64,000 nt of DNA, taken from assembly GCF_025642745.1 (NCBI RefSeq), contig NZ_JANZKP010000016.1:1-64000 (forward strand), in the 5' to 3' direction. This DNA is from Cellulomonas sp. RIT-PI-Y. GTDB taxonomy: Bacteria > Actinomycetota > Actinomycetes > Actinomycetales > Cellulomonadaceae. The notes beneath the pieces are model-generated. The model saw nothing but the letters and a program-made list of their open reading frames with translations. It was not told where the DNA came from and searched no databases. The translations under genes were made by a program, and so were the position numbers. Shown here in pieces: positions 14,174 through 27,900 of the stretch (its first letter is position 1; every line of letters begins with the position of its first letter).

Positions 14174-15972
14174 GCGCCCAGGAGCGCGGCCACACGCTGG
14201 GCGACACCGAGCAGCTCGGCGTGCTCGGCACCCTGCGACGGGGTGTCCAGGTGTCCCCGCAGCTGGTGCGCGGCATCGGGATCACCCTGCTGCTCGCGGT
14301 GCTGGCCGCCGGCGGCAAGGTGGTGGTGCCGATCGCGGTGCAGCAGACGATCGACTCCGGGATCCTCGCCGACGGCGGCCCGGACGTGCACCGGGTGCTG
14401 TGGCTCGCGGCGGGCGCCGTGCTGGCCCTGGTGCTCGGCGGCCTGTGCTCCGCGGCGGTCAACATCCGGCTGTTCCGGGCCTCCGAGGCCGGGCTCGCCG
14501 AGCTGCGGGTCCGGGCGTTCCGGCACGTGCACGACCTGTCGGTGCTGACCCAGAACACCGAGCGCCGGGGGTCCCTGGTCTCCCGGGTGACCAGCGACGT
14601 CGACACCATCTCCCTGTTCGTGCAGTGGGGCGGCATCATGCTGGTGGTCTCGGTGCTGCAGGTCGGCGTGGCGACGGTGCTGATGCTGGTCTACTCCTGG
14701 CAGCTCGCCGTGCTGGTCTGGGTCTGCTTCCTGCCGCTGGCCGTCGCCCTGCACCCGCTGCAGAAGAAGGTCAACCGGGCGTACACCCGGGTCCGGGAGC
14801 GGGTCGGCGCGATGCTCGGCGCGGTCTCCGAGTCCGTGGTCGGCGCCGAGACCATCCGGGCGTACGGGGTGCAGGCCCGCACCCAGCGCACGATCGACGC
14901 CCGGGTCGGCGACACCCGGAACGCCCAGGTCCGGGCCCAGAACACCGTGTCCGTGGTGTTCTCCTCCGGCGTGCTGGTCGCGAACCTGGTGCTGGCCGTC
15001 GTCGTGGTGGTCGGCACCCATCTGGGCATCGGCGGCGCGCTGACCGCGGGCAAGCTGCTGGCCTTCCTGTTCCTGGTGCAGTTGTTCACCGGACCGGTGC
15101 AGCAGGCCACCGAGGTGCTGAACGAGCTGCAGAACGCGGTGGCGGGCTGGCGCCGGGTGCTCGGCATCATCGACACGCCGGTGCAGGTCGCCGACCCGGG
15201 CCCGGCCGGCGTGCCCTCGCCCCGCGGTCCCGCCGAGGTGCGGCTGGACGGCGTGCGGTTCGCCTACCCCAGCGGTCCGACCGTGCTGCACGACGTCGAC
15301 CTGGAGCTGCCCGCGGGGCGCTCGGTGGCCGTGGTCGGTGCGACCGGCTCCGGCAAGACCACCATCGCCAAGCTGGTCACCCGGCTGATGGACCCGGTGG
15401 ACGGCGCGGTGCGCCTGGACGGCGTGGACCTGCGGCAGATCCGGACCGAGGACCTGCGCCGACGGGTCGTCATGGTCCCGCAAGAGGGCTTCCTCTTCGA
15501 CGCGACCCTGGCGGAGAACCTGGCCTACGGGCTGCGCGACGGGGCCGCCCCCGACCGGGGTGCCCTGCTGTCGGCGCTGGACGAGCTGGGGCTGACCGGC
15601 TGGGTGAACGAACTGCCCGCCGGGCTGGACACGCCGGTCGGGCAGCGCGGCGAGTCGTTGTCGGCGGGGGAGCGGCAGCTGGTGGCCCTGGCCCGTGCCT
15701 ACCTCGCGGACGCCGACCTGCTGGTGCTGGACGAGGCCACCTCCGCGGTGGATCCCGCCACCGAGGTCCGGATCGCCCGCGCGCTCGACTCCCTGACCAC
15801 CGGGCGCTCCACCCTGACCATCGCGCACCGGTTGTCCACCGCCGAGGCCGCCGATCTGGTGGTGGTGGTCGACGCCGGACAGGTGGTCGAGTTCGGCCCG
15901 CACGAGGAGCTGGTGGCGGACGACGGGGTGTACGCCTCGATGCACGCCGCCTGGGTCGCGCAGACCCGCTGA
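14170..15972 (+). CDS. heterodimeric ABC exporter subunit with catalytic Walker B
   Basis: 600-residue partner of the preceding half-transporter. Membrane domain at about 30-330, then ATPase with Walker A GATGSGKTT (about 389-397), Q-loop VPQEGF, Walker B LLVLDEATS with the catalytic Glu, and H-loop IAHR. Its signature is LSAGERQ rather than LSGGQ. This is the mirror image of its partner: an intact Walker B/H-loop pairs with the partner's intact signature, while its altered signature faces the partner's altered Walker B. The ATG overlaps the upstream stop by 4 bases, so both are probably made in equal amounts. Confidence 0.9.
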   Translation: MSAQERGHTLGDTEQLGVLGTLRRGVQVSPQLVRGIGITLLLAVLAAGGKVVVPIAVQQTIDSGILADGGPDVHRVLWLAAGAVLALVLGGLCSAAVNIRLFRASEAGLAELRVRAFRHVHDLSVLTQNTERRGSLVSRVTSDVDTISLFVQWGGIMLVVSVLQVGVATVLMLVYSWQLAVLVWVCFLPLAVALHPLQKKVNRAYTRVRERVGAMLGAVSESVVGAETIRAYGVQARTQRTIDARVGDTRNAQVRAQNTVSVVFSSGVLVANLVLAVVVVVGTHLGIGGALTAGKLLAFLFLVQLFTGPVQQATEVLNELQNAVAGWRRVLGIIDTPVQVADPGPAGVPSPRGPAEVRLDGVRFAYPSGPTVLHDVDLELPAGRSVAVVGATGSGKTTIAKLVTRLMDPVDGAVRLDGVDLRQIRTEDLRRRVVMVPQEGFLFDATLAENLAYGLRDGAAPDRGALLSALDELGLTGWVNELPAGLDTPVGQRGESLSAGERQLVALARAYLADADLLVLDEATSAVDPATEVRIARALDSLTTGRSTLTIAHRLSTAEAADLVVVVDAGQVVEFGPHEELVADDGVYASMHAAWVAQTR

Positions 15973-15996
15973 TCGGCCCATGAAAGGATCACCCGT

Positions 15997-16371
15997 GTGA
16001 ACGACAGCACCGCGACTCTCGACCCGACCATCGCCGCGCGTCTCAAGCGCGACGACGCCGGACTGGTCGCCGCCGTGATCCAGCAGCACGACACCGGTGA
16101 GGTGCTCATGCTCGGCTGGATGGACGACGAGGCCCTGCACCGCACGCTGACCGGCGGTCGCGTGGTGTTCTGGAGCCGGTCCCGCGGGGAGTACTGGCGC
16201 AAGGGCGACACCTCCGGGCACGCCCAGTACGTGAAGTCGGTCGAGCTGGACTGCGACGGCGACGCCCTGCTGGTCCGGGTCGACCAGATCGGCGCGGCCT
16301 GCCACACCGGCAGCCGGACGTGCTTCGAGGCCGGGGGCGACCTGGGCGCGATCGTGGGGGAGCGGGCATGA
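15997..16371 (+). CDS. hisI: phosphoribosyl-AMP cyclohydrolase
   Basis: 124-residue enzyme for the third step of histidine synthesis, opening the adenine ring of phosphoribosyl-AMP. The family's signature is present: [12 protein letters not shown], then [20 protein letters not shown], and the metal-binding Cys residues in [15 protein letters not shown]. It lacks a HisE (pyrophosphohydrolase) domain, as in most Actinobacteria. GAAAGGA (15982-15988) gives good spacing to the GTG at 15997. It overlaps trpE by 4 bases (ATGA), so histidine and tryptophan genes are coupled here; the other his genes are not in this window. Confidence 0.93.
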
Positions 16372-17912
16372 CCGCCGTCGAGGTGCCCTGGGGCCGGACC
16401 TGGCCGACGCTGGCCGACTTCCGCGAGCTGGCCGCCGAACGCCGGGTGATCCCGGTGGTCCGCCGGCTGCTCGCCGACGACACGACCCCGGTCGGGCTGT
16501 ACCGCACCCTGGCGCAGGGCCGTCCGGGCACCTTCATCCTGGAGTCCGCGGAACAGGACGGCACCTGGTCGCACTGGTCGTTCGTCGGAGTCCGTTCCCG
16601 TGCCACCCTGACCGTCCGCGACGGCCGCGCGACCTGGCTCGGCGACGTGCCCGCCGGGGTGCCCACCGAGGGCGATGTCCTGGACGTCCTCGGCCGCACC
16701 CTGGACGTGCTGCGCACCCCCGAGGTCCCCGGGCTGCCGCCGCTGACCGGAGGACTGGTCGGCGCGCTCGGCTGGGACATCGTCCGGCACTGGGAGCCCA
16801 CCCTGCCCGCTGCCGCCCCCGACGAGCTGGACGTGCCGGAGCTGTCGCTCTGCCTGGCCAGCGACCTCGCGGTCACCGACCACCGCGACGGCTCGGTCTG
16901 GCTGGTGGCGAACGCGATCAACTTCGACGGCACCGACGAGCGGGTGGACGAGGCGCACGCCGACGCCGTGGCCCGGTTGGACGCGATGGAGCGGCAGCTG
17001 CTGTCCGGTACCGCACCGGCCGTCGCCCAGCTCGCCGAGGACGCCCCGACCCCGGAGCTGGAGTTCCGCACCACGCGGTCCGACTTCGAGGACGCGGTGC
17101 GTGCCGGTCAGGTCGCGATCCGGGACGGCGACGTGTTCCAGGTCGTGATCTCCCAGCGCCTGGACCTGGACTGCCCGGCCGACCCGCTGGACGTCTATCG
17201 CGTGCTGCGCACCATCAACCCGAGCCCGTACATGTACTACCTGCAGCTGCAGGACGCGTCCGGCCGGGACTTCGCGGTGGTCGGCTCCAGCCCGGAGACC
17301 CTGGTCAAGGTGGCCGACGGGCACGTCACGACGTTCCCGATCGCCGGTTCGCGCCCGCGCGGCGCCACCCCCGAAGAGGACCGGCGGCTGCACGACGAGC
17401 TGATGGCCGATCCCAAGGAGCGCGCCGAGCACCTGATGCTGGTCGACCTGTCCCGCAACGACATGGTCAAGGTCTGCGTGCCGGCCACCGTCGAGGTCGC
17501 CGAGTTCATGCAGGTGCACCGGTACAGCCACATCATGCACATCTGCTCCACCGTGACCGGCGAGCTCCGGGAGGGGGCGACGGCGCTCGGCACGCTCACC
17601 GCGACCTTCCCGGCGGGCACGCTCTCCGGTGCGCCCAAGCCCCGCGCGATCGCGCTGATCGACGAGATCGAACCGGCCCGGCGCGGCATCTACGGCGGCA
17701 CGGTCGGCTACTTCGACTTCGCCGGGAACATGGACATGGCGATCGCGATCCGGACCGCGCTGATCCGGGACGGCCGGGCCAGCGTCCAGGCCGGCGGCGG
17801 GATCGTCGCCGACTCGGTGCCGGCCCTGGAGTACGAGGAGTCCCGCAACAAGGCGGCCGCCGCCGTCCGGGCGGTGCAGATCGCCGCCCGGCTGCGGCCG
17901 GTGACGCCGTGA
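16368..17912 (+). CDS. trpE: anthranilate synthase component I
   Basis: 514-residue chorismate-binding enzyme that, with a glutamine amidotransferase (TrpG, not in this window), makes anthranilate from chorismate. The C-terminal catalytic domain contains [10 protein letters not shown] (the PIAGS form typical of TrpE rather than the PIKGT form of PabB), [40 protein letters not shown] and [15 protein letters not shown]. The N-terminal region [17 protein letters not shown] and [10 protein letters not shown] forms the usual feedback (tryptophan) site. ATG 16368 overlaps the hisI stop. No leader peptide or attenuator is visible upstream. Confidence 0.95.
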
Positions 17913-18490
17913 ACCCCACCCGTCGCGGCCCCTGGGTGCTGCTGCTGCTCGTCCTGGCCGGACTCTGTGGCGCGGTCACCCTGCCGGCCTGGCTCACGGC
18001 CACCGCCACCGGCCCGGTGATCGGCACCGTCGCGGTCCGGGTCACCGGCGCAGCGGCGGCGCCGGGCGTGATCGGCGCGTCGCTGGTCCTGGCCGCCGCC
18101 GCGATCGCCCTCGGGCTGGTCGGCAGGATCGGTCGTTGGGTGGTCTCCGTGGTGGTCGCCGCGGGCGGTGTGCTGGTGGTGGTCGGCGCCCTGGGCGCCC
18201 GTTCCGGTGCGGTGGACCGGGCACGTCAGGCCGCGGCGGACCTCACCGGGGTCGGCGTGCTGGACGGCGACGTCACGGTGACCGCCTGGCCGTGGGCCGC
18301 GGTCGGGCTCGGGGTCCTGGTGCTCGTCGCCGCGGTGCTGCTGGTGCGCGCCTCCGCGCACTGGGCCGCGCCTTCCTCCCGGCACGAGCGGGCCGGAGCG
18401 GAGTCGACGACCCCGGAGCGGGCCGAACCCGCCGAGGACGACGAGCGGGCCACCTGGGACGCCCTCGGCCGGGGTGACGATCCCACCTGA
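17909..18490 (+). CDS. trp-operon-associated membrane protein (TIGR02234/Trp_oprn_chp-like)
   Basis: 193-residue membrane protein coupled to trpE by a GTGA overlap. About four hydrophobic segments (10-30, 50-75, 78-100, 130-155) are followed by a charged C-terminal tail rich in Glu, Asp and Arg. The position just after trpE and the topology match the actinobacterial family named for its place in trp operons. Its function is not established; a link to tryptophan or precursor transport has been assumed from position only. Confidence 0.75.
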   Translation: MNPTRRGPWVLLLLVLAGLCGAVTLPAWLTATATGPVIGTVAVRVTGAAAAPGVIGASLVLAAAAIALGLVGRIGRWVVSVVVAAGGVLVVVGALGARSGAVDRARQAAADLTGVGVLDGDVTVTAWPWAAVGLGVLVLVAAVLLVRASAHWAAPSSRHERAGAESTTPERAEPAEDDERATWDALGRGDDPT

Positions 18491-18586
18491 TCGACTGAGC
18501 GTTCACTGTGCACGAGATGCCAACACCGGTAGCCTTTCGGGCGATTGTGGTGCTTTGACCACGCACATCAGCCGCGAGGAGACGTG

Positions 18587-19075
18587 ATGTCCACCCCGAA
18601 CCAGCCGCAGGACCCGTACCAGCCCGGTGACGGCAGCACCGGAGACTCCGGCGCGCCGCAGTACGGCCAGACCCCGTCCTACGGGGAGACCCCCTCCTAC
18701 GGGCAGGCCCCGGACGCCGGCCAGACGCCGCAGTACGGCCAGTACGGTGCGCCGCAGGACCCGGCGGCGGGTGGCTACCCGCAGTACCCGGCCGGTCAGC
18801 CGTACGCGCAGACCCCGATGTACGGCTACCCGAAGAACACCCTCGGCGTCTGGGCCCTGGTGCTCGGCATCGTGAGCCTGGTGATCTGCGCTCCCGCCGG
18901 TATCGCCGCGATCATCGTCGGCGGGAACGCCAAGAAGGCGGTCGCGCGCGGCGAGGCGAACAACGGCGGTCTGGCGACCGCGGGTGTCGTGATGGGCTGG
19001 ATCGGGATCGGCCTGCTGATCCTCGGCATCATCCTCGGCATCACCGGAGCCCTCGGCGACGCCCTCAGCTCCTGA
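18587..19075 (+). CDS. DUF4190 membrane protein with Gly/Gln/Tyr/Pro-rich tail
   Basis: 162-residue protein. Residues 1-82 are low complexity with repeated Tyr-Gly-Gln and Pro-Ser-Tyr-Gly units, probably a disordered cytoplasmic region. Residues 83-160 form the DUF4190 domain with two hydrophobic segments (GVWALVLGIVSLVICAPAGI and a second near the C-terminus) separated by GEANNGGLATAGVVMGWI. CGAGGAG (18574-18580) sets the ATG at 18587, and a -10-like TAGCCT lies near 18531. No function is known; such proteins are common in Actinobacteria. Confidence 0.75.
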   Translation: MSTPNQPQDPYQPGDGSTGDSGAPQYGQTPSYGETPSYGQAPDAGQTPQYGQYGAPQDPAAGGYPQYPAGQPYAQTPMYGYPKNTLGVWALVLGIVSLVICAPAGIAAIIVGGNAKKAVARGEANNGGLATAGVVMGWIGIGLLILGIILGITGALGDALSS

Positions 19076-19080
19076 CGCCG

Positions 19081-19533
19081 ATGACGGTCGAGCAGCACAC
19101 GCGGGCGACGGCTCCCTCGGGGGCCGTCGCCCGCCTGCGCTCGGCCCGGGTCCCGCTGCTGTCCGGCGCGGCGGTCGGTGCGGCCGGGCTCGCCCTGGTG
19201 CTGCGCGACCCGAACCGGTCCGGGTCGTGGGGCGCCTGCCCGCTGTACGCGCTCACCGGGTGGTACTGCCCGGCGTGCGGCGGACTACGGGCGACGCACG
19301 ACCTGCTGACCGGGGACCTCGCGGGTGCCTGGGCGATGAACCCGGTCTGGGTCCTGCTCGTCCCGGTCGTCGTCGGCCTCTGGGCGCGCTGGGCCTGGCT
19401 GCGGAGCCGGGGTCGGCGGGCAGATCTCGGGATCCAGGACCGGTGGTACGTCGTCGCCCTGGTCCTGTTGCTGGTCTACGGCGTGGCTCGCAACGTGCCC
19501 GCCTGGTCAGGGGTCCTGGCGCCACCCGGGTGA
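19081..19533 (+). CDS. DUF2752 membrane protein
   Basis: 150-residue membrane protein starting 5 bases after the preceding stop, so probably co-transcribed. It has the DUF2752 hallmark: CPLYALTGWYCPACGGLRAT (about 57-76), in which the CPxCGG cysteines may bind metal or form a disulfide, followed by HDLLTGDLAGAWAMNP. Hydrophobic segments lie at about 25-42, 88-106 and 122-140. Function unknown. The pairing with DUF4190 proteins recurs in Actinobacteria. Confidence 0.75.
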   Translation: MTVEQHTRATAPSGAVARLRSARVPLLSGAAVGAAGLALVLRDPNRSGSWGACPLYALTGWYCPACGGLRATHDLLTGDLAGAWAMNPVWVLLVPVVVGLWARWAWLRSRGRRADLGIQDRWYVVALVLLLVYGVARNVPAWSGVLAPPG

Positions 19534-19602
19534 TCGTCCCCCGGTGGCCCGCGAGCGCGCGTTACGGTGACCTCCGACCCACATCCCGGCGCGAGGAGCA
19601 GC

Positions 19603-20454
19603 ATGTCCACCCCGTACGACCCGCAGGACGCGAACCGCCCGGCCGATCCGGACGCGGCGGACCGGTCCGAGACGTCCGCGCAGTCGGCGGACGGCGTCCC
19701 CGGGCTGTCTCCGGACGTGCCCGCCGTCGACCCGTACGGACAGCAGCCCTCGGCGTCCGCCCCCGACCGGTTCGCCCCGCCGCGGGCCGACGCCGCCGCG
19801 CCCGACCGGTTCGCCCCGCCGCAGGCCGACGCCGCGCTCGACCCCTACGGCCGGGCGCAGCCGTCCGGCCAGCCGCAGCAACCCTACGGCGCGGCGCCGG
19901 ATCGCTACGGTCAGTCCCCGTCCTACGGTGCGGCCCCCGACCCCTACGGCCAGTCCCCGTCCTACGGCGCGGCCCCCGACCCCTACGGCCAGCAGTCCCC
20001 GTACGGCGGCTACGGCCAGCAGCCCACCGGCTCGGTCCCGCCCGCGAGTGCCTACGGCCAGCAGCCGTACGGCCAGCCGGCCTACGGTCAGCCCACCTAC
20101 GGTCAGACCGCGCCGTACGGTCAACCGACGCCCTACGGTCAACCCACCGGCTACGTGGCCCCGGGCTCCTACGCCCCGGTCGTCACCTACCCCAAGAACT
20201 CGCTCGCGATCTGGTCGCTGCTGCTCGGCATCATCGGCGTGGTCGCGTTCTGGGCCCTGTGCCCGTTCCTGGCGTCGGCCGGCGCGGTCGTGACCGGGCA
20301 CCTGAGCCTGAAGGCGGCCGAGCGCGGCGAGTCGAACAATCGTGGAATGGCCGTCTGGGGCCTGGTGCTCGGCTATGTCGGCGCGGCCCTGAGCGTGCTG
20401 GTCTTCATCCTGAGCTTCACGCGCGGCTTCCTGGACGCCTGGAACACGTACTGA
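19603..20454 (+). CDS. DUF4190 membrane protein with long Gln/Tyr/Gly/Pro repeat region
   Basis: 283-residue relative of the protein at 18587. The first 195 residues are disordered and repetitive: two copies of a PDRFAPP unit, then many Tyr-Gly-Gln-Ser/Gln-Pro-type units. Two hydrophobic segments follow (SLAIWSLLLGIIGVVAFWAL and MAVWGLVLGYVGAALSVLV) around GHLSLKAAERGESNN, which is the DUF4190 pattern. GAGGAG (19593-19598) sets the ATG at 19603; a start at 19567 has no such site. The tail length is likely to vary between strains because of the repeats. Function unknown. Confidence 0.75.
   Translation: MSTPYDPQDANRPADPDAADRSETSAQSADGVPGLSPDVPAVDPYGQQPSASAPDRFAPPRADAAAPDRFAPPQADAALDPYGRAQPSGQPQQPYGAAPDRYGQSPSYGAAPDPYGQSPSYGAAPDPYGQQSPYGGYGQQPTGSVPPASAYGQQPYGQPAYGQPTYGQTAPYGQPTPYGQPTGYVAPGSYAPVVTYPKNSLAIWSLLLGIIGVVAFWALCPFLASAGAVVTGHLSLKAAERGESNNRGMAVWGLVLGYVGAALSVLVFILSFTRGFLDAWNTY
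19735..20160 (+). repeat. in-frame Tyr-Gly-Gln-Pro coding repeats
   Basis: Tandem, imperfect 9-30 base units encoding Tyr-Gly-Gln-Pro and Tyr-Gly-Ala-Ala-Pro-Asp patterns, including a near-exact duplication around 19921-19990. They lie inside the gene at 19603 and are expected to be unstable in length by slippage. Confidence 0.6.
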
Positions 20455-20507
20455 GCCGACCGTCCGTTAGGGTTGGCGACATTCCGTCAGAAAGGTGCTG
20501 GGACACG

Positions 20508-20825
20508 ATGGCCGGTCAGCCGCAGCGAACTGAAAGCCCCCGGGGTGGCGTCGCCGTCACCGCACAGGGTCCGCGGATGGAGGCGCTGCGTCTCCCGCCG
20601 GTGGCTCCGCCGACCAACCACGGGCGCACCGTCGCCGCCTGGACGGTCACCTACACGGTGGTCGCCGGGTTCACGGTGGCCGCTCTGGCGATGATCTTCT
20701 CCTTGGTCTGGCTGGTCTGGGCCGGTTTGGCCGTGGCGGTGGCCGGCGTGGTCGTGGGCATCGTGCTGCGCGCGGCGGGCTTCGGCCAGGGCGGCAAGCA
20801 CACGCCGACGCACGGCCACCACTAG
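20508..20825 (+). CDS. HGxxPAAW-like small membrane protein
   Basis: 105-residue protein with two adjacent hydrophobic segments (about 44-60 and 64-86) and a His-rich C-terminus. The segment before the first helix, [14 protein letters not shown], matches the HGxxPAAW pattern that names a small actinobacterial family found just upstream of trpC. I chose ATG at 20508, which starts MAGQPQRTE; a TAGGGT hexamer at 20468-20473 may be its promoter. The longer frame that runs in from the left overlaps the DUF4190 gene and is not real. Function unknown. Confidence 0.7.
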
Positions 20826-20917
20826 TCGCCGCCCGCTCACCAGGTGGGCGGGTGGTCAGCGCATCCGCTCGGCGGCTCTACGATGACGGAGCCGCCGCCG
20901 AAGTGGGGAGACGTCCG

Positions 20918-21733
20918 ATGGCAACTGTTCTCGACGACATCGTGGCCGGGGTCCGTGAGGACCTGGCCGTGCGCCAGTCCGCGACGTCCCTGGACGAGCT
21001 GAAGGAACGGGCGTCGCACGTCCGCGGTGCGGTGGAGTGCGTCTCCCGGCTCCGGCTGGCCGACGCGGTGACCGTGATCGCGGAGGTCAAGCGATCCAGC
21101 CCGAGCAAGGGCGCGCTGGCCACCATCACCGACCCCGCCGCGCTGGCCGCCGAGTACGAGAAGGGCGGCGCGTCCGTCATCTCGGTGCTCACCGAGCAGC
21201 GCCGTTTCAAGGGCAGTCTCGCCGACCTGGACAGCGTGCGCGCCGCGGTGGACATCCCGGTGCTGCGCAAGGACTTCGTCGTCACGCCCTACCAGGTGTG
21301 GGAGGCGCGGGCGCACGGCGCGGACCTGGTCCTGCTCATCGTGGCCGCGCTGGAGCAGACCGTGCTGACCTCCCTGGTGGAGCGGGTGCACTCGTTGGGC
21401 ATGACCGCCCTGGTCGAGGTGCACGACTCCGAGGAGGTGCTGCGCGCGGTGGACGCCGGTGCCCGCGTGGTCGGCGTGAACGCCCGCGACCTCAAGACCC
21501 TGGAGGTCGACCGCGGCACCTTCGCCAAGGTCGCGCCCTCCATCCCGAGCGACGTGGTCCGGATCGCCGAGTCCGGGGTCCGCGGGCCGCACGACGTCAT
21601 GGACTACGCCCGGGCCGGTGCCGACGCGGTGCTGGTCGGCGAGGCCCTGGTCACCGACGACGCCCCCCGGCAGTCGGTGGCGGATCTGGTCGCCGCGGGG
21701 GCGCACCCGTCGCTCCGCGCCGTCCGCCAGTAA
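20918..21733 (+). CDS. trpC: indole-3-glycerol phosphate synthase
   Basis: 271-residue TIM barrel enzyme that closes the indole ring in tryptophan synthesis. Recognised by [13 protein letters not shown] (substrate phosphate and catalytic Lys), [20 protein letters not shown] (catalytic Lys), [23 protein letters not shown] and IAESGV. Single-domain length, without a fused TrpF. GTGGGGAG precedes ATG 20918, and TACGAT at 20879-20884 is a plausible -10, so trpCBA may have its own promoter apart from hisI-trpE. I found no tryptophan-rich leader peptide. Confidence 0.95.
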
Positions 21734-21754
21734 GCACTTCCCGAGAGGATCACC

Positions 21755-23059
21755 GTGCCCGACGCAGCACCCGGCCGCCCCGAGACCGACCGGACCGCGG
21801 CCACCGGTCCGCTCGCCCAGCACGAGGGCCCGTACTTCGGTGAGTTCGGCGGGCGCTTCGTGCCCGAGGCCCTGGTCGCCGCGCTGGACCAGCTGGAGGA
21901 CGCCTTCGCCAAGGCCAAGGCGGACCCGGATTTCGGCGCCGAGCTGAGCCGACTGCACCGCACCTACACCGGCCGGCCGAGCCCGCTGACCGAGGTGCCG
22001 CGGTTCGCCGCGCAGTGTGGTCCGGGTCTCCGGGTCTTTCTGAAGCGCGAGGACCTGAACCACACCGGTTCCCACAAGATCAACAACGTGCTCGGCCAGG
22101 CCCTGCTGGTGAAGCGGATGGGCAAGACCCGGGTGATCGCGGAGACCGGCGCCGGTCAGCACGGTGTCGCCACCGCGACGGCCGCCGCGCTCCTCGGCCT
22201 GGAGTGCACGGTGTACATGGGGGCGGTCGACGCGGAGCGCCAGTCGCTGAACGTGGCCCGGATGCGGTTGCTCGGCGCCGAGGTGATCCCGGTCGAGATC
22301 GGGACCCGCACCCTCAAGGACGCGATCAACGAGGCGCTGCGCGACTGGGTCGCCCACGTGGACAGCACGCACTACCTGCTGGGCACCGCCACCGGCCCGC
22401 ACCCGTTCCCGAGCATGGTCCGCGACCTGCACTCGATCATCGGTGAGGAGGCCCGCGCGCAGCTCGCCGCCGAGATCGGCCGGTTGCCGGACGCCGCGGT
22501 CGCCTGCGTCGGCGGCGGGTCGAACGCGATCGGCCTGTTCAACGCGTTCCTGGACGAGCCGTCGGTCCGGCTGTACGGATTCGAGGCCGGTGGCGCGGGC
22601 ATCTCCTCCGGCAAGCACGCGGCCCGGTTCAGCGGCGGGTTCCCCGGGGTGCTGCAGGGCACCAAGTCGTACCTGCTGCAGGACGAGGACGGGCAGACCC
22701 TGCCCAGCCACTCGGTCTCGGCCGGTCTGGACTACCCGAGCGTCGGCCCCGAGCACGCCTGGCTGCACGACACCGGTCGCGCCGAGTACCTGCCGGTCAC
22801 CGACGACGAGGCGATGGAGGCGTTCCGGATCCTCTGCCACACCGAGGGGATCATCCCGGCGATCGAGTCCTCGCACGCCCTGGCCGGAGCGATCAAGCTC
22901 GGCGAGCAGGCCGCGAGCTGGCGCGACGACGGGCAGGCGCCGGTCATCCTGGTGAACCTGTCCGGCCGGGGGGACAAGGACGTGGCAACCGCCGCCGCGT
23001 GGTTCGGCCTGGTCGAGGACAAGCCGGTGGTCGACGCCGACGAGGGAGAGCAGCTGTGA
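21755..23059 (+). CDS. trpB: tryptophan synthase beta subunit
   Basis: 434-residue PLP enzyme joining indole and serine. The PLP lysine is in HTGSHKINN; the cofactor phosphate loop is [23 protein letters not shown]-type sequence ([14 protein letters not shown]) and [15 protein letters not shown] at the N-terminus are diagnostic of TrpB1. GAGAGGA precedes the GTG at 21755. It overlaps trpA by 4 bases (GTGA), which fits the alpha-beta complex and indole channelling. Confidence 0.96.
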
Positions 23060-23883
23060 CGACATCCCAGGACGCGGCGCCGGCCACGGCAGCCACCGCG
23101 ACCACCCGGAACCGCACGGCCGCCACCCTGGACCGGCTTCGCGACGAGGGACGTGCCGCGCTGGTCGGGTACCTGCCGCTCGGCTACCCCGACGTCGCGG
23201 GATCGGTCGCCGCCGCGCGCACCCTGGTCGAGAACGGCGTCGACGTGATCGAGCTCGGCCTGCCGTACTCCGACCCGGTGATGGACGGCCCGACCATCCA
23301 GCACGCGGTCGACCGGGCGCTCGCCCAGGGCACCCGGGTCCGGGACGTGTTCGCCGCGGTGGAGCAGATCGCCGCCACCGGCGCGCCCACACTGGTGATG
23401 ACCTACTGGAACCCGGTGCTGCGCTACGGCGTGGACGTCTTCGCCCGTGACCTGGCCCAGGCCGGTGGCGCGGGCCTGATCACGCCGGACCTGATCCCGG
23501 ACGAGGGCGCGGACTGGATCGCCGCCTCGACCGCGCACGACCTGGACCGGGTGTTCCTGGTCGCCCCGTCGTCCACCCCCGAGCGGCTGGCCATGACCGC
23601 CGCCGCCTGCGAGGGCTTCGTCTACGCCGCCTCCACCATGGGCGTGACGGGAGAGCGCACCAGCGTCGGTGCGCAGGCCGAGCACCTGGTCTCGTCGACC
23701 CGTGCCGCCGGGGCCGAGCGGGTCTGCGTCGGCCTCGGAGTGTCCCGTCCGGAGCAGGCCGCGGACATCGCGCGCTACGCGGACGGCGTGATCGTCGGCT
23801 CGGCGTTCGTGCGCGCCCTGGACGGCGGACTGAGCGAGCTCGCCGGGGTCGCCGCCGGCCTGGCCGAGGGCGTGCGCCGGTGA
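23056..23883 (+). CDS. trpA: tryptophan synthase alpha subunit
   Basis: 275-residue TIM barrel that cleaves indole-3-glycerol phosphate. The catalytic Glu and Asp are in [16 protein letters not shown], followed by [19 protein letters not shown] and [12 protein letters not shown]. An N-terminal Ala/Thr-rich stretch of about 20 residues precedes the conserved domain. GTG 23056 overlaps the trpB stop, and the gene itself overlaps lgt by 4 bases, so trpB-trpA-lgt is one coupled unit. Confidence 0.96.
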
Positions 23884-24803
23884 TCCTCTCGATCCCCAGC
23901 CCGTCGCAGTCGGTCTGGTACCTCGGGCCGCTCCCGCTGCGCGCCTACGCCCTGGCCATCCTCGCCGGGATCGTGGTCGCGGTGCTGCTCACCCAGCGGC
24001 GGTGGAAGGAGCGCGGCGGGGACCCGGACGAGGTGCTGGAGATCGTGTTCTGGGCGGTGCCGTTCGGCATCGTCGGCGGGCGGCTGTACCACGTGATCAC
24101 CAGCCCGGACGCGTACTTCGGGGCCGGGGGAGACCCGTGGAAGGCGTTCGCGATCTGGGAGGGCGGGCTCGGCATCTGGGGTGCGGTCGCCCTCGGCGCG
24201 GTCGGCGCGTACATCGGCTGCCGCCGGATGAAGGTCAGCTTCCCGGTGTTCGCCGACGCGCTGGCACCCGGTCTGCTGATCGCCCAGGCGATCGGGCGAC
24301 TGGGCAACTGGTTCAACCAGGAGCTGTTCGGCGGCCCGACCACCCTGCCCTGGGGGCTGGAGATCGACGCGGCACACCTGCCCGCCGGTTACGCCGAGGG
24401 CACCCTGTTCCACCCGACCTTCCTGTACGAGCTGCTGTGGAACCTGGCCGGTGCGGCGCTGATCATCTGGCTGGACCGTCGGCTGCGGCTCGGCCACGGG
24501 CGGGCGTTCTGGCTGTACGTGGTCGTCTACACCACCGGACGGCTCTGGATCGAGCTGGTCCGGATCGACCCGGCGCACACCATCGCGGGCCTGCGGGTCA
24601 ACGTGTGGATGTCGATCCTGCTCGGCCTCGGCGCGCTGGTAGCGTTCATGGTGGTCGGACGCCGTCACCCCGGACGCGAGACCAGCACCCGCCTGCCGGG
24701 CTCGGAGATCGAGGACCCCGTGCAGGACGAGGACACCGAATCGCCGGTGGACGCCTCCGAACAGGACGCACCGGCCTCCGGCACCCCCGCTGCGGAGCAG
24801 TAG
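23880..24803 (+). CDS. lgt: prolipoprotein diacylglyceryl transferase
   Basis: 307-residue polytopic membrane enzyme that adds diacylglycerol to the lipobox Cys of prelipoproteins. The Lgt signature is seen as GRLGNWFNQELFG, with the conserved HPTFLYELLWNL and YTTGRLWIELVRIDPAH segments near the C-terminus. The last 50 residues are an acidic cytoplasmic tail. Its location directly after trpA (GTGA overlap) is standard in Actinobacteria. It would act on the siderophore-binding lipoprotein encoded at 37070-38086, among others. Confidence 0.95.
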   Translation: MILSIPSPSQSVWYLGPLPLRAYALAILAGIVVAVLLTQRRWKERGGDPDEVLEIVFWAVPFGIVGGRLYHVITSPDAYFGAGGDPWKAFAIWEGGLGIWGAVALGAVGAYIGCRRMKVSFPVFADALAPGLLIAQAIGRLGNWFNQELFGGPTTLPWGLEIDAAHLPAGYAEGTLFHPTFLYELLWNLAGAALIIWLDRRLRLGHGRAFWLYVVVYTTGRLWIELVRIDPAHTIAGLRVNVWMSILLGLGALVAFMVVGRRHPGRETSTRLPGSEIEDPVQDEDTESPVDASEQDAPASGTPAAEQ

Positions 24804-24815
24804 CCGTACGCATTT

Positions 24816-24857
24816 GAGACGATGTGATTCCTGCCCGTTACGGGCATGTATCGTCTC
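24816..24857. promoter_or_regulatory. nested inverted repeat between lgt and gltB
   Basis: A perfect 8-base inverted repeat (GAGACGAT 24816-24823, ATCGTCTC 24850-24857) encloses a second perfect one (TGCCCG 24832-24837, CGGGCA 24841-24846). It starts 13 bases after the lgt stop. It may be the lgt terminator, an operator for nitrogen control of gltBD, or both; a -10-like TATCGT (24849-24854) lies inside the right arm, which favours a regulatory role. Confidence 0.5.
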
Positions 24858-24932
24858 CCCACCCCGGGCCGACGACGTCCCACCCCCACAGGTATCGACG
24901 TGGCCCGCCCCCGGGCCGTGAGGACGGTGCAG

Positions 24933-27900
24933 ATGCCCGCGTCACCGATCAACGCCCCGACGGCAACCGGTCTGTACGACCCGGCTGCCGAGCACGACGC
25001 GTGCGGATTCGCCTTCGTGGCGACCCTGCGCGGCACGCCCGGGCGCGACATCGTGGACGCCGGACTGACGGCGTTGCTCAACCTGGACCACCGCGGTGCG
25101 GTCGGTGCGGAGGAGAACAGCGGCGACGGCGCCGGCATCCTGACCCAGATCCCGGACGCGTTCCTGCGTGACGTGGTCGACGCCGAGCTGCCGCCCGCCG
25201 GCCGGTACGCGATCGGCATGGCCTACCTCCCGACGGACGCCACCGAGCGCGCCGCCACCGAGCGCGCGGTCGAGGCGATCGCCGCGGAGGAGAAGCTCGA
25301 CGTGCTGGCCTGGCGCGACGTGCAGGTCACCGCCGACCTGGTCGGCCCCAGCGCCCGGGCGTCGATGCCGTTCTTCCGCCAGCTGGTGGTCGCCGACCCC
25401 TCGCGCGAGCTGGCCGGTGTGGACCTGGACCGGCGGGCGTTCCGGCTGCGCAAGCGGGCCGAGCGCGAGCTGGACCTCTACTTCTCCTCGCTGTCCGCGC
25501 GCACGCTCGCCTACAAGGGGATGCTCACCACCGGTCAGCTGGAGCCGTTCTTCACCGATCTCTCGGACCCGCGGTACGCCAGCGAGATCGCCCTGGTGCA
25601 CTCCCGCTTCTCCACCAACACCTTCCCGTCCTGGCCCCTGGCCCAGCCGCTGCGCCTGATCGCGCACAACGGCGAGATCAACACGGTCAAGGGCAACCGG
25701 AACTGGGTCGCCGCGCGCGAGGGCACGCTGCGCAGCGAGGCCCTGGGCGACCTCAGCCCGCTGCTGCCGGTGTGTACCCCCGGCGGGTCGGACTCCGCGT
25801 CCTTCGACGAGGTGCTGGAGCTGCTGCACCTGTCCGGCCGCAGCCTGCCGCACGCGGTGATGATGATGATCCCGGAGGCGTGGGAGAACCACGCCCAGAT
25901 GGACCCCGCCCGCCGCGCGTTCTACGAGTACCACGCCACCCTGATGGAGCCCTGGGACGGCCCGGCGGCGATCACCTTCACCGACGGCACCCTGATCGGC
26001 TCGGTGCAGGACCGCAACGGCCTGCGTCCCGGGCGGTTCTGGGTGACCGAGGACGGCCTGGTCGTGATGGCCTCCGAGGCGGGGGTGCTCGACCTGGACC
26101 CGGCGACCGTCGTCCGCAAGGGTCGGCTCGAGCCCGGCAAGATGTTCCTGGTCGACACCGGCAAGGGCCGGATCGTCGAGGATGACGAGGTCAAGGCCCA
26201 GCTCGCCGCGCAGAAGCCCTACGCGCGCTGGGTGGCCGAGAACTCGGTCTACCTGGATCAGCTGCCCGAGCGCGAGCACATCGCGCACTCCGCGGCGAGC
26301 GTCCGGCGCCGGCAGCGCGCCTTCGGGTACACCGAGGAAGAGCTCAAGATCCTGCTGTCCCCGATGGGGGCCACTGGTGCGGAGCCGCTCGGCGCGATGG
26401 GATCGGACACCCCGATGGCCGTGCTCTCCGCCCGGCCGCGGCTGCTGTTCGACTACTTCACCCAGATGTTCGCCCAGGTGACCAATCCGCCGCTGGACGC
26501 GATCCGCGAGGAGCTGGTCACCAGCATCGGCGGCGCGATCGGCCCGGAGCCCAACCTCCTGGAGGACGGCCCGCAGCACGCCCGCAAGCTGGTGCTGCCG
26601 TTCCCGGTGCTGGACAACGACGGCCTGGCCAAGATCGTCAAGGTGCACAAGGACCCGGCGATGGCCGGCATCTTCCGCAGCACGATCGTCCGTGGCCTGT
26701 ACCCGGTCTCGGGTGGCGGCGAGGCGCTGGAACTGCGGCTGAGCGAGATCTTCGCCGAGGTGGACCGCGCGGTCGAGGACGGCGTGAGCTTCATCGTGCT
26801 GTCCGACCGGGACGGTGACGCCGACCGCGCGCCGATCCCGTCCCTGCTGCTGCTGTCCGCGGTGCACCACCACCTGCTGCGCCGGCACACCCGTACCCAG
26901 GTGTCGCTGGTCGTCGAGGCCGGGGACGTCCGCGAGGTGCACCACGTCGCGCTCCTGATCGGCTACGGCGCGGCGGCGGTGAACCCGTACCTGGCGATGG
27001 AGACCGTCGAGGATCTGGCCCGATCCGGCTTCCTGCCCGGTGTCGCGCCGGAGAAGGCGGTCGCCAACCTGATCAAGGGCCTCGGCAAGGGTGTGCTGAA
27101 GGTGATGTCCAAGATGGGCATCTCGACCATCGCCTCCTACCGCGGCGCCCAGGTGTTCGAGGCGATCGGCCTGTCGCACGCGCTGGTCGACCGGTACTTC
27201 ACCGGCACCACCAGCCGTCTGGGCGGGATCGGCCTGGACGTGATCGCCGCCGAGGTCGCCGCCCGGCACGCCGACGCCTACCCGGCCTCCGGCAACCGGC
27301 AGCCGCACCGCCGCCTGGCCACCGGTGGCGAGTACCAGTGGCGCCGCGACGGCGAGGACCACCTGTTCGACCCGGAGACCGTGTTCCGGCTCCAGCACTC
27401 CACCCGGACCCGGCAGATGGACGTCTTCCGGCAGTACACCCACCGGGTCAACGAGCAGTCCGAGCGGTTGATGACCCTGCGCGGGCTGCTGAGGTTCCGC
27501 GACGGCGAGCGTGCCCCGGTCCCGGTGGACGAGGTCGAGTCGATCGCGGACATCGTCAAGCGGTTCTCCACCGGAGCGATGTCCTACGGGTCGATCAGCC
27601 AGGAGGCGCACGAGACGCTGGCGGTCGCGATGAACCAGCTCGGCGCCAAGTCGAACACCGGCGAGGGCGGTGAGGACCCGGAGCGTCTGCACGACCCGGT
27701 CCGCCGTTCGGCGATCAAGCAGATCGCCTCCGGCCGGTTCGGCGTGACCAGCGAGTACCTGACCTTCGCCGACGACATCCAGATCAAGCTCGCCCAGGGC
27801 GCCAAGCCCGGTGAGGGCGGTCAGCTGCCCGGTCCCAAGGTCTACCCGTGGGTGGCCAAGACCCGGCACTCGACCCCCGGCGTCGGCCTGATCTCCCCGC

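What the first reader, a model, noticed from the sequence alone, without database searches (positions are those of the whole stretch)
18587..20825. Four small membrane proteins embedded between trpE and trpC
Two DUF4190 proteins with Tyr/Gly/Gln/Pro-rich disordered tails flank a DUF2752 protein with a CPxCGG motif, followed by an HGxxPAAW protein, all on the same strand inside the tryptophan gene cluster. With the trp-associated membrane protein this makes five uncharacterised membrane proteins in a row. The repeated tails look like scaffolds or condensate formers; the constant company suggests a membrane complex of unknown role.
Basis: partly seen in the sequence, partly recalled or inferred. 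Interest (0 to 1): 0.5.

Follow-up and report, generated by a model that had tools for sequence, protein, structure and literature searches.

The report
Paired small membrane proteins inside trp
Two of the small membrane genes in this tryptophan cluster look like a local form of a widespread bacterial gene pair, in which a two-helix membrane protein (in many bacteria a relative of the human antiviral IFITM proteins) sits beside one and the same uncharacterised partner, which offers a first handle on what these proteins do in bacteria.

Summary
trpE–TAMP is followed by DUF4190-A, DUF2752, DUF4190-B, HGxxPAAW and trpC, all on one strand.

TAMP and HGxxPAAW are regular tenants of this locus in relatives. 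The other part is a separable module: a two-helix hairpin protein next to DUF2752. It occurs far beyond trp. In 149 phylum genomes, 10 of 12 above-cut-off CD225 (IFITM/dispanin) matches have DUF2752 as the next gene. In 80 loci chosen by CD225 similarity, from eight named phyla, 71 do. Bacteroidota DUF2752 sits beside CD225, TM2, CCC/DUF4190 or DUF4234 proteins in 25 of 30 loci.

In some close relatives the window's DUF4190 slot holds CD225, and there DUF2752 groups with its hairpin type, not with the flanking trp genes. G001 is a mosaic: its upstream DNA and N-terminal tail resemble its sisters, while its hairpin and DUF2752 resemble other CD225 pairs. No paper in the library holds the word DUF2752.

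I read it as a two-protein membrane complex that is not specific to tryptophan. Its biochemical role is inferred only.

The parts
16368..17912 (+). trpE, anthranilate synthase component I (context)
   Evidence: NCBIfam PRK13571.1 766 bits
17909..18490 (+). TAMP, tryptophan-associated membrane protein; overlaps the end of trpE; conserved C-terminal WDaLsRGdDP
   Evidence: Pfam PF09534 125.6 bits; conservation
18587..19075 (+). DUF4190-A: low-complexity Y/G/Q/P-rich N-tail (1-82) plus two-helix hairpin with Cys-Ala-Pro break; hairpin subunit of the pair
   Evidence: (model pLDDT 68.8)
19081..19533 (+). DUF2752: three predicted long helices and a Cys-rich cap (C53, C63, C66, R70, N87, R137); constant partner of the pair; starts 5 bp after DUF4190-A
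19603..20454 (+). DUF4190-B: second hairpin, long N-tail (1-196); a DUF4190 also follows DUF2752 in 13 of the 35 relative loci
20508..20825 (+). HGxxPAAW protein (DUF6704); on the trpC side in this genome, unlike in the relatives
20918..21733 (+). trpC, indole-3-glycerol phosphate synthase (context)

Best explanation
Two of the four genes (DUF4190-A and DUF2752; probably also DUF4190-B) are a local form of a widespread two-protein integral-membrane module that is not specific to tryptophan. Shown here by genomics: a small hairpin protein (CD225/dispanin, DUF4190, CCC motif or TM2) and DUF2752 are often neighbouring genes, and in the Cellulomonas group DUF2752 is inherited with its hairpin type. 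Inferred: they form one complex. The hairpin lies in the membrane with its charged loop, and probably its low-complexity, zinc-ribbon or GYF tail, on the cytosolic side. DUF2752 is a three-helix partner whose invariant residues (C53, C63, C66, R70, N87, R137, nearly N138) sit at the outer face and form a thiol or metal site. My best guess at the work done is membrane organisation or envelope-stress sensing, with the Cys cap as a switch. In this lineage the module is lodged beside two separate trp-locus tenants, TAMP and HGxxPAAW.
For: 10 of 12 CD225 matches over the Pfam cut-off in 149 genomes of the window's phylum have DUF2752 next (checked in 34, 40, 84). In 198 Bacteroidota 3 of 4 do; the centre genome had itself been found through a CD225 pair, and without it the count is 2 of 2. 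71 of 80 scan loci. CD225 stop to DUF2752 domain start: median 5 bp, 68 of 71 at 60 bp or less. In 69 scan loci not linked to trp, the only families found in more than 8 of the 51 non-Mycobacterium loci are DUF2752 (43) and CD225 (36). CD225 fills the DUF4190 slot in some Cellulomonas-group trp clusters. DUF2752 clades match hairpin type there (96/86 CD225-paired; 83/96 DUF4190 side), while flanking trp genes put G001 among the window's sisters (100); holding it there in the DUF2752 tree gives p-AU 0.005. Identities agree. Model pLDDT 91.1; charge pattern.
Against: Many DUF2752 have no adjacent hairpin: 5 of 30 relative loci, the trp-linked DUF2752 of G060, G121, G143 and G164, about 19 of 48 phylum matches where I recognised no partner by eye, and 5 of 30 Bacteroidota loci. 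9 of 80 CD225 loci lack DUF2752 next to them, 7 of them mycobacterial. Over 137 DUF2752 sequences the partner label is clustered but not clean: 14 changes, shuffled mean 57; CD225 alone 10, TM2 6 for 10 rows. No natural fusion was found. The DUF4190-CD225 profile link is weak when direct (45.5%), and TM2 is unrelated by profile. DUF2752 matches no PDB fold, so the biochemical role is a guess. The Cellulomonas split could come from loss after one tandem duplication, which keeps pairs together without proving contact.
Confidence: 0.6

Rival explanations
1. The four proteins plus TAMP are one trp-dedicated membrane complex, for instance a scaffold, exporter or sensor for tryptophan, indole or anthranilate.
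For: 31 of 31 relative loci with both genes keep HGxxPAAW directly after TAMP at trp. HGxxPAAW is limited to the class in the phylum sample (8 of 149). The two relatives without a trpC match also lack both HGxxPAAW and DUF2752 (G027, G033).
Against: 60 of 71 CD225-DUF2752 loci show no trpC or trpE in the DNA held. In G001 hairpin and DUF2752 differ from those of its sisters while HGxxPAAW and trpC do not. G026 keeps trpC without HGxxPAAW or DUF2752.
Confidence: 0.15
2. Positional passengers: small membrane genes in a conserved, well expressed operon with independent housekeeping roles and no complex among them.
For: lgt and gltB, which are not trp genes, follow in the same run. Four class- or order-level relatives carry DUF2752 at trp without a hairpin.
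Against: The same two gene kinds stay adjacent at other loci in eight named phyla with no third constant neighbour, and in the Cellulomonas group DUF2752 follows its hairpin type.
Confidence: 0.18
3. A defence or phage-derived module, by analogy with antiviral IFITM.
For: CD225 relatives are antiviral in vertebrates, and two mycobacterial IFITMs restrict influenza virus in human cells (PMC4488726, abstract and passages seen).
Against: No PADLOC or PHROGs match for the five window proteins; no CD225 relative confirmed in viral contigs (29 pattern matches, none held up); stable place at trp in the relatives.
Confidence: 0.05

Closest known systems
CD225/Dispanin family (IFITM, PRRT; PF04505)
   Same: Two hydrophobic segments, Cys and Pro-Gly in the first, a basic loop, often a proline-rich N-tail. 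CD225 itself fills this slot in some close relatives. Bacterial CD225 matches human PRRT1 at E 2.5e-16; PRRT1 is a component of native AMPA-receptor complexes (PMC8365426, start of abstract in listing).
   Different: The window hairpins are DUF4190, not CD225 (no CD225 match in the genome). They are linked by profile only weakly when direct (45.5%) and through CCC (96.4% and 90.7%).
CCC motif membrane protein (NF040945) with DUF2752 in Bacteroidota
   Same: Hairpin next to DUF2752, profile-similar to DUF4190.
   Different: The CCC gene follows DUF2752 in 10 of 11 such loci, and most of the proteins lack a long N-tail.
TM2 domain proteins (PF05154)
   Same: Two-helix proteins next to DUF2752 in two class-level relatives (unnamed, family f18; I think mycobacteria) and in 8 of the 24 Bacteroidota partners scanned.
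   Different: No profile similarity to CD225 or DUF4190.
TrpX/TrpM of Streptomyces coelicolor (SCO2038)
   Same: Small uncharacterised ORF in an actinobacterial trp locus (PMC5036795, start of abstract).
   Different: It lies in trpCXBA, i.e. after trpC; the genes here precede trpC. A passage search found none of SCO2040-SCO2043 in that paper.

Membership tests
DUF4190 (PF13828) | match above Pfam cut-off (35 bits) | tested here: met
   47.4 and 48.3 bits
DUF2752 (PF10825) | match above cut-off and CPxCG..R..N signature | tested here: met
   70.2 bits; C53, C63, C66, G67, R70, N87, R137 invariant in 55 sequences
HGxxPAAW / DUF6704 | match above NCBIfam/Pfam cut-offs | tested here: met
   55.8 and 53.9 bits; motif reads HGRTVAAW
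Tryptophan-associated membrane protein | Pfam PF09534 and place after trpE | tested here: met
   125.6 bits, overlaps the trpE end
Tryptophan-associated membrane protein | TIGR02234 cut-off (71.15 bits) | tested here: not met
   33.8 bits
CD225/Dispanin (IFITM) | PF04505 match for the window hairpins | tested here: not met
   no CD225 match at E 0.001 in G000, none up to E 0.1
CD225/Dispanin (IFITM) | common ancestry of the hairpin domain | tested here: inconclusive
   hhalign 45.5% direct; DUF4190-CCC 96.4%, CD225-CCC 90.7%
CD225/Dispanin (IFITM) | membrane-fusion or curvature activity | not testable with these tools
   no experiment
TM2 domain family | profile similarity of the hairpin | tested here: not met
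   1.3% (DUF4190) and 0.4% (CD225) probability
Anti-phage defence system | match to a PADLOC model | tested here: not met
   0 families for 7 proteins, five of the window and two CD225
Tryptophan-pathway component | effect on tryptophan synthesis or need | not testable with these tools
   needs deletion mutants

The most novel reading that the evidence does not exclude
DUF2752 is the ancestral dedicated partner of the IFITM/dispanin superfamily. Dispanins began in bacteria as one half of a two-protein membrane machine with an outer-face cysteine/metal site. DUF4190 and CCC proteins are divergent dispanins that kept this partner, and animal IFITM/PRRT proteins lost DUF2752 and now dock on other membrane proteins such as AMPA receptors. 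The trp cluster of Cellulomonas relatives is a natural laboratory in which hairpin and DUF2752 swap together while the low-complexity tail stays behind.
Probability: 0.35. Interest if true: 0.85.

Novelty: new variant of a known kind. Interest (0 to 1): 0.6.

Why it matters
Bacterial IFITM/dispanin proteins were described in 2012 (PMC3282796, passages seen), and a 2015 paper states that their function in bacteria had not been studied (PMC4488726, passage). A frequent partner gene in eight named phyla gives that question a concrete test: which hairpin binds which DUF2752, and what is lost without it. It also offers a reason why such proteins sit in actinobacterial trp clusters without assuming a tryptophan role. 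No paper in the held library has the word 'DUF2752' or 'DUF4190', and the two papers found with 'bacterial IFITM' or 'bacterial dispanin' do not use the word operon. Subscription literature is not held.

Tried and rejected
RNA control: no Rfam match up to E 1 in 15000-25000. Defence or phage origin: no PADLOC or PHROGs match, and no confirmed CD225 relative in viral contigs. Natural fusion of hairpin and DUF2752: none in the loci held. Known fold for DUF2752: best Foldseek E 5.5, best VIA-align Z 2.0; an unlisted family is not excluded. Fold of the DUF4190 hairpin: low-confidence model (pLDDT 68.8), nothing under E 0.001. Matches of the CCC profile to chains named sc-CC (best E 1.8e-5, probably designed coiled coils) and of the DUF4190 profile to PsbY (E 0.5) were dismissed as helix composition. 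The salt-tolerance locus stlA (PMC3861447, passages seen) was dropped: its TM2 gene is another gene on the fosmid, not stlA. TM2 as a homologue of the other hairpins was rejected on profiles.

Rows dropped before counts: in the 137-row DUF2752 tree I left out 10 scan loci (9 Mycobacterium near-copies and L128, the same locus as L081), and most phylum or Bacteroidota loci without a recognised partner. The 50-row tree is a chosen subset of these. In one search I left out the 11 trp-linked loci and counted Mycobacterium loci apart; with them counted one unnamed family reaches 17 of 69 loci and three reach 10. An earlier spacing figure (median 9 bp) took the start codon nearest to the stop and so leans to short gaps; I use instead. 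The AU-test group was named after I had seen the trees. In one search, G018 also matches G001's first 25 residues (79% over 19 aligned), its tail was cut wrongly by my pattern, and the upstream 160 bp of G017 hardly aligned (18 bases).
Full report
WHAT IS THERE. The window carries hisI-trpE-TAMP-DUF4190A-DUF2752-DUF4190B-HGxxPAAW-trpC-trpB-trpA-lgt-gltB on the + strand (Pfam for the outer genes). All four named small genes and TAMP match their Pfam families above cut-off. DUF2752 starts 5 bp after DUF4190-A. The low-complexity parts are N-terminal: Y+G+Q+P are 66% of residues 1-82 in A and 53% of 1-196 in B, against 20% in eight neighbouring genes pooled.

LOCAL CONSERVATION. I fetched the locus from 35 of 38 relatives (24 of the same genus, 11 of the same order). 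The three not fetched (G026, G027, G033) had no match to HGxxPAAW or DUF2752; G027 and G033 also lack a trpC match, while G026 has one. In all 31 loci with both TAMP and HGxxPAAW, HGxxPAAW is the next gene after TAMP; the window is the exception, with HGxxPAAW on the trpC side. DUF2752 is present in 30 of the 35 loci. A same-strand hairpin gene lies directly upstream in 25 of these: DUF4190 in 20, CD225 in 4 (G001, G002, G023, G035), both kinds in G021. Cellulomonas persica (L156) also carries both pairs at trp.

BEYOND TRP. In 149 evenly drawn genomes of the phylum, DUF2752 is found in 40 (48 matches) and HGxxPAAW in 8. CD225 gives 12 matches over the cut-off; for 10 of these DUF2752 is the next gene (with Pfam check of neighbours and loci in 34, 84). 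The two exceptions are G132:C8 and a partial match in G144. By my reading, made by eye, the 48 DUF2752 matches divide into 10 with CD225, 2 with TM2 (Pfam), about 12 in a DUF4234 and/or DUF4190 arrangement, 1 in the window, 4 at trp with HGxxPAAW only, and about 19 with no partner I recognised, some of them at contig ends. Outside the class, none of the 31 genomes with DUF2752 has it within 10 kb of trpC on one contig.

BACTEROIDOTA. In 198 genomes there are 4 CD225 matches in 3 genomes, 3 of the 4 followed by DUF2752. The centre genome was found through such a pair; without it the count is 2 of 2. DUF2752 itself is in 104 of 198. In the 30 best-scoring loci, 24 gave a hairpin-like neighbour that I scanned: TM2 in 8, DUF4190 in 9, CD225 in 3, DUF4234 in 3 (Pfam), CCC motif in 11 (NCBIfam); the families overlap. 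L231 is a 25th by my own model only, and 5 of 30 show none.

NAMED LOCI. In 71 of 80 a CD225 gene has DUF2752 directly downstream; 8 of these loci hold more than one CD225 match, and in L192 it is not the matched gene. The 71 include Actinomycetota, Bacteroidota, Chlorobiota, Lentisphaerota, Planctomycetota, Chloroflexota, Hydrogenedentota and Pseudomonadota (record titles; lineages). The query was built from pairs, so this number is biased upwards; the Pfam-based samples above are not, apart from the Bacteroidota centre. Eleven of the 71 lie at the trp cluster (in L199 on the other strand). The 9 misses are 7 Mycobacterium loci, L161 (two CD225 genes in a row), and L188, where a 450-residue ORF (transposase by my recollection, not searched) lies between the two genes. 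From the CD225 stop to the DUF2752 domain the median is 5 bp, 68 of 71 at 60 bp or less. In the 69 loci not linked to trp (51 outside Mycobacterium), DUF2752 recurs in 43 and CD225 in 36 of the 51, the next family in 8; among Mycobacterium loci shared flanks raise one other family to 17 of 69.

THE PAIR TENDS TO BE INHERITED AS A UNIT. A 50-sequence IQ-TREE of DUF2752 puts the 9 CD225-paired Cellulomonas-group proteins together (96/86). The DUF4190-paired ones (21, with 3 unpaired) form the sister group (83/96), and the two DUF2752 of G021 fall one in each. Over 137 sequences the partner label needs 14 changes against 57 when shuffled, but CD225 is not one group (10 changes), TM2 is scattered (6 changes, 10 rows), and a few CD225-paired proteins fall on the DUF4190 side. 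A tree of the flanking TrpE+C+B+A puts CD225-bearing G001 inside the window's own subclade (support 100). Holding G001's DUF2752 there costs 55.5 log-likelihood units (p-AU 0.005; group named after seeing the trees). Identities agree: G001 against its sister G009 is 95% in TrpC and 78% in HGxxPAAW but 47% in DUF2752, while its DUF2752 is 66% identical to that of CD225-bearing G002. Within the G001 hairpin gene the upstream 160 bp (82% over 133 bases) and the N-tail (76%; first 25 residues 76%) match sister G009, but the hairpin matches G002 (66%) rather than G009 (32%). Tails are low-complexity, so their identity is inflated (59% against G002), and more distant G018 also matches the first 25 residues. 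Either transfer, or recombination between tails of a tandem pair as in C. persica, would explain this one case; in both, hairpin and DUF2752 stayed together.

RELATION OF THE HAIRPINS. Profile comparison links DUF4190 to CCC (96.4%) and CD225 to CCC (90.7%), DUF4190 to CD225 directly only 45.5%, and TM2 to neither. Many trp-slot CD225 and DUF4190 genes share the start MSTPN-E/Q/D-P (starts picked by a pattern). Human PRRT1 is the only strong PDB match of the bacterial CD225 profile (E 2.5e-16).

ANATOMY AND MECHANISM. DUF2752 models with pLDDT 91.1 as three long helices (14-41, 88-109, 120-137) and short helices between 54 and 86. The charge pattern (K+R 3.45 and D+E 0.16 in the 106-120 loop; balanced charge in 42-87) suggests N-terminus and loop inside, and the Cys region and the RN-x-P end outside. 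All seven residues invariant in 55 sequences (C53, C63, C66, G67, R70, N87, R137) then lie at the outer face; this is inference from charge and model, with no measured distances. In the hairpins the basic loop is predicted cytosolic. Zinc-ribbon and GYF_2 tails in some CD225 partners also suggest a cytosolic tail, although the dispanin paper placed both ends outside (PMC3282796, passage). The complex, the thiol/metal site and an envelope role are inferences.

LITERATURE. PMC library only: no paper holds DUF2752 or DUF4190. The two papers found with 'bacterial IFITM' or 'bacterial dispanin' were seen by passage search; neither uses 'operon'. A last search with family names and Pfam accessions listed 10 of 250 papers, none on this pairing by title. 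On checking I lowered confidence slightly (0.62 to 0.60), because more DUF2752 lack a partner than I had first counted.

Noticed in passing
20508-20825: HGxxPAAW lies directly before trpC in this genome instead of directly after TAMP (31 of 31 relative loci with both), and its motif reads HGRTVAAW.
   Followed up: partly
17909-18490: TAMP ends in a strongly conserved WDaLsRGdDP segment in relatives, a candidate docking motif.
   Followed up: no
L120, L126, L127, L255: A variant cassette DUF2752-DUF4234-DUF4190 follows a CorA gene (Pfam for L255; the others by eye); its DUF2752 is of a divergent kind.
   Followed up: partly
L188:85-2235: A 450-residue ORF, transposase-like by eye, sits between CD225 and DUF2752: a natural interruption of the pair.
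   Followed up: no
L168, L173, L174, L175, L179, L182, L184: Seven Mycobacterium loci hold a CD225 gene with no DUF2752 beside it.
   Followed up: no
L145:2155-6100: A Micrococcales MAG carries two DUF2752, one CD225 and three DUF4190 genes in one run.
   Followed up: no
L083:8975-9295, L087:8894-9193: In two relatives whose trp locus lacks DUF2752, a DUF4190 gene lies between HGxxPAAW and trpC on the opposite strand.
   Followed up: no
L219, L224, L161, L192: Hairpin proteins of this kind exchange N-terminal parts: zinc ribbon, GYF_2 or Pro/Gly/Tyr-rich tail.
   Followed up: partly
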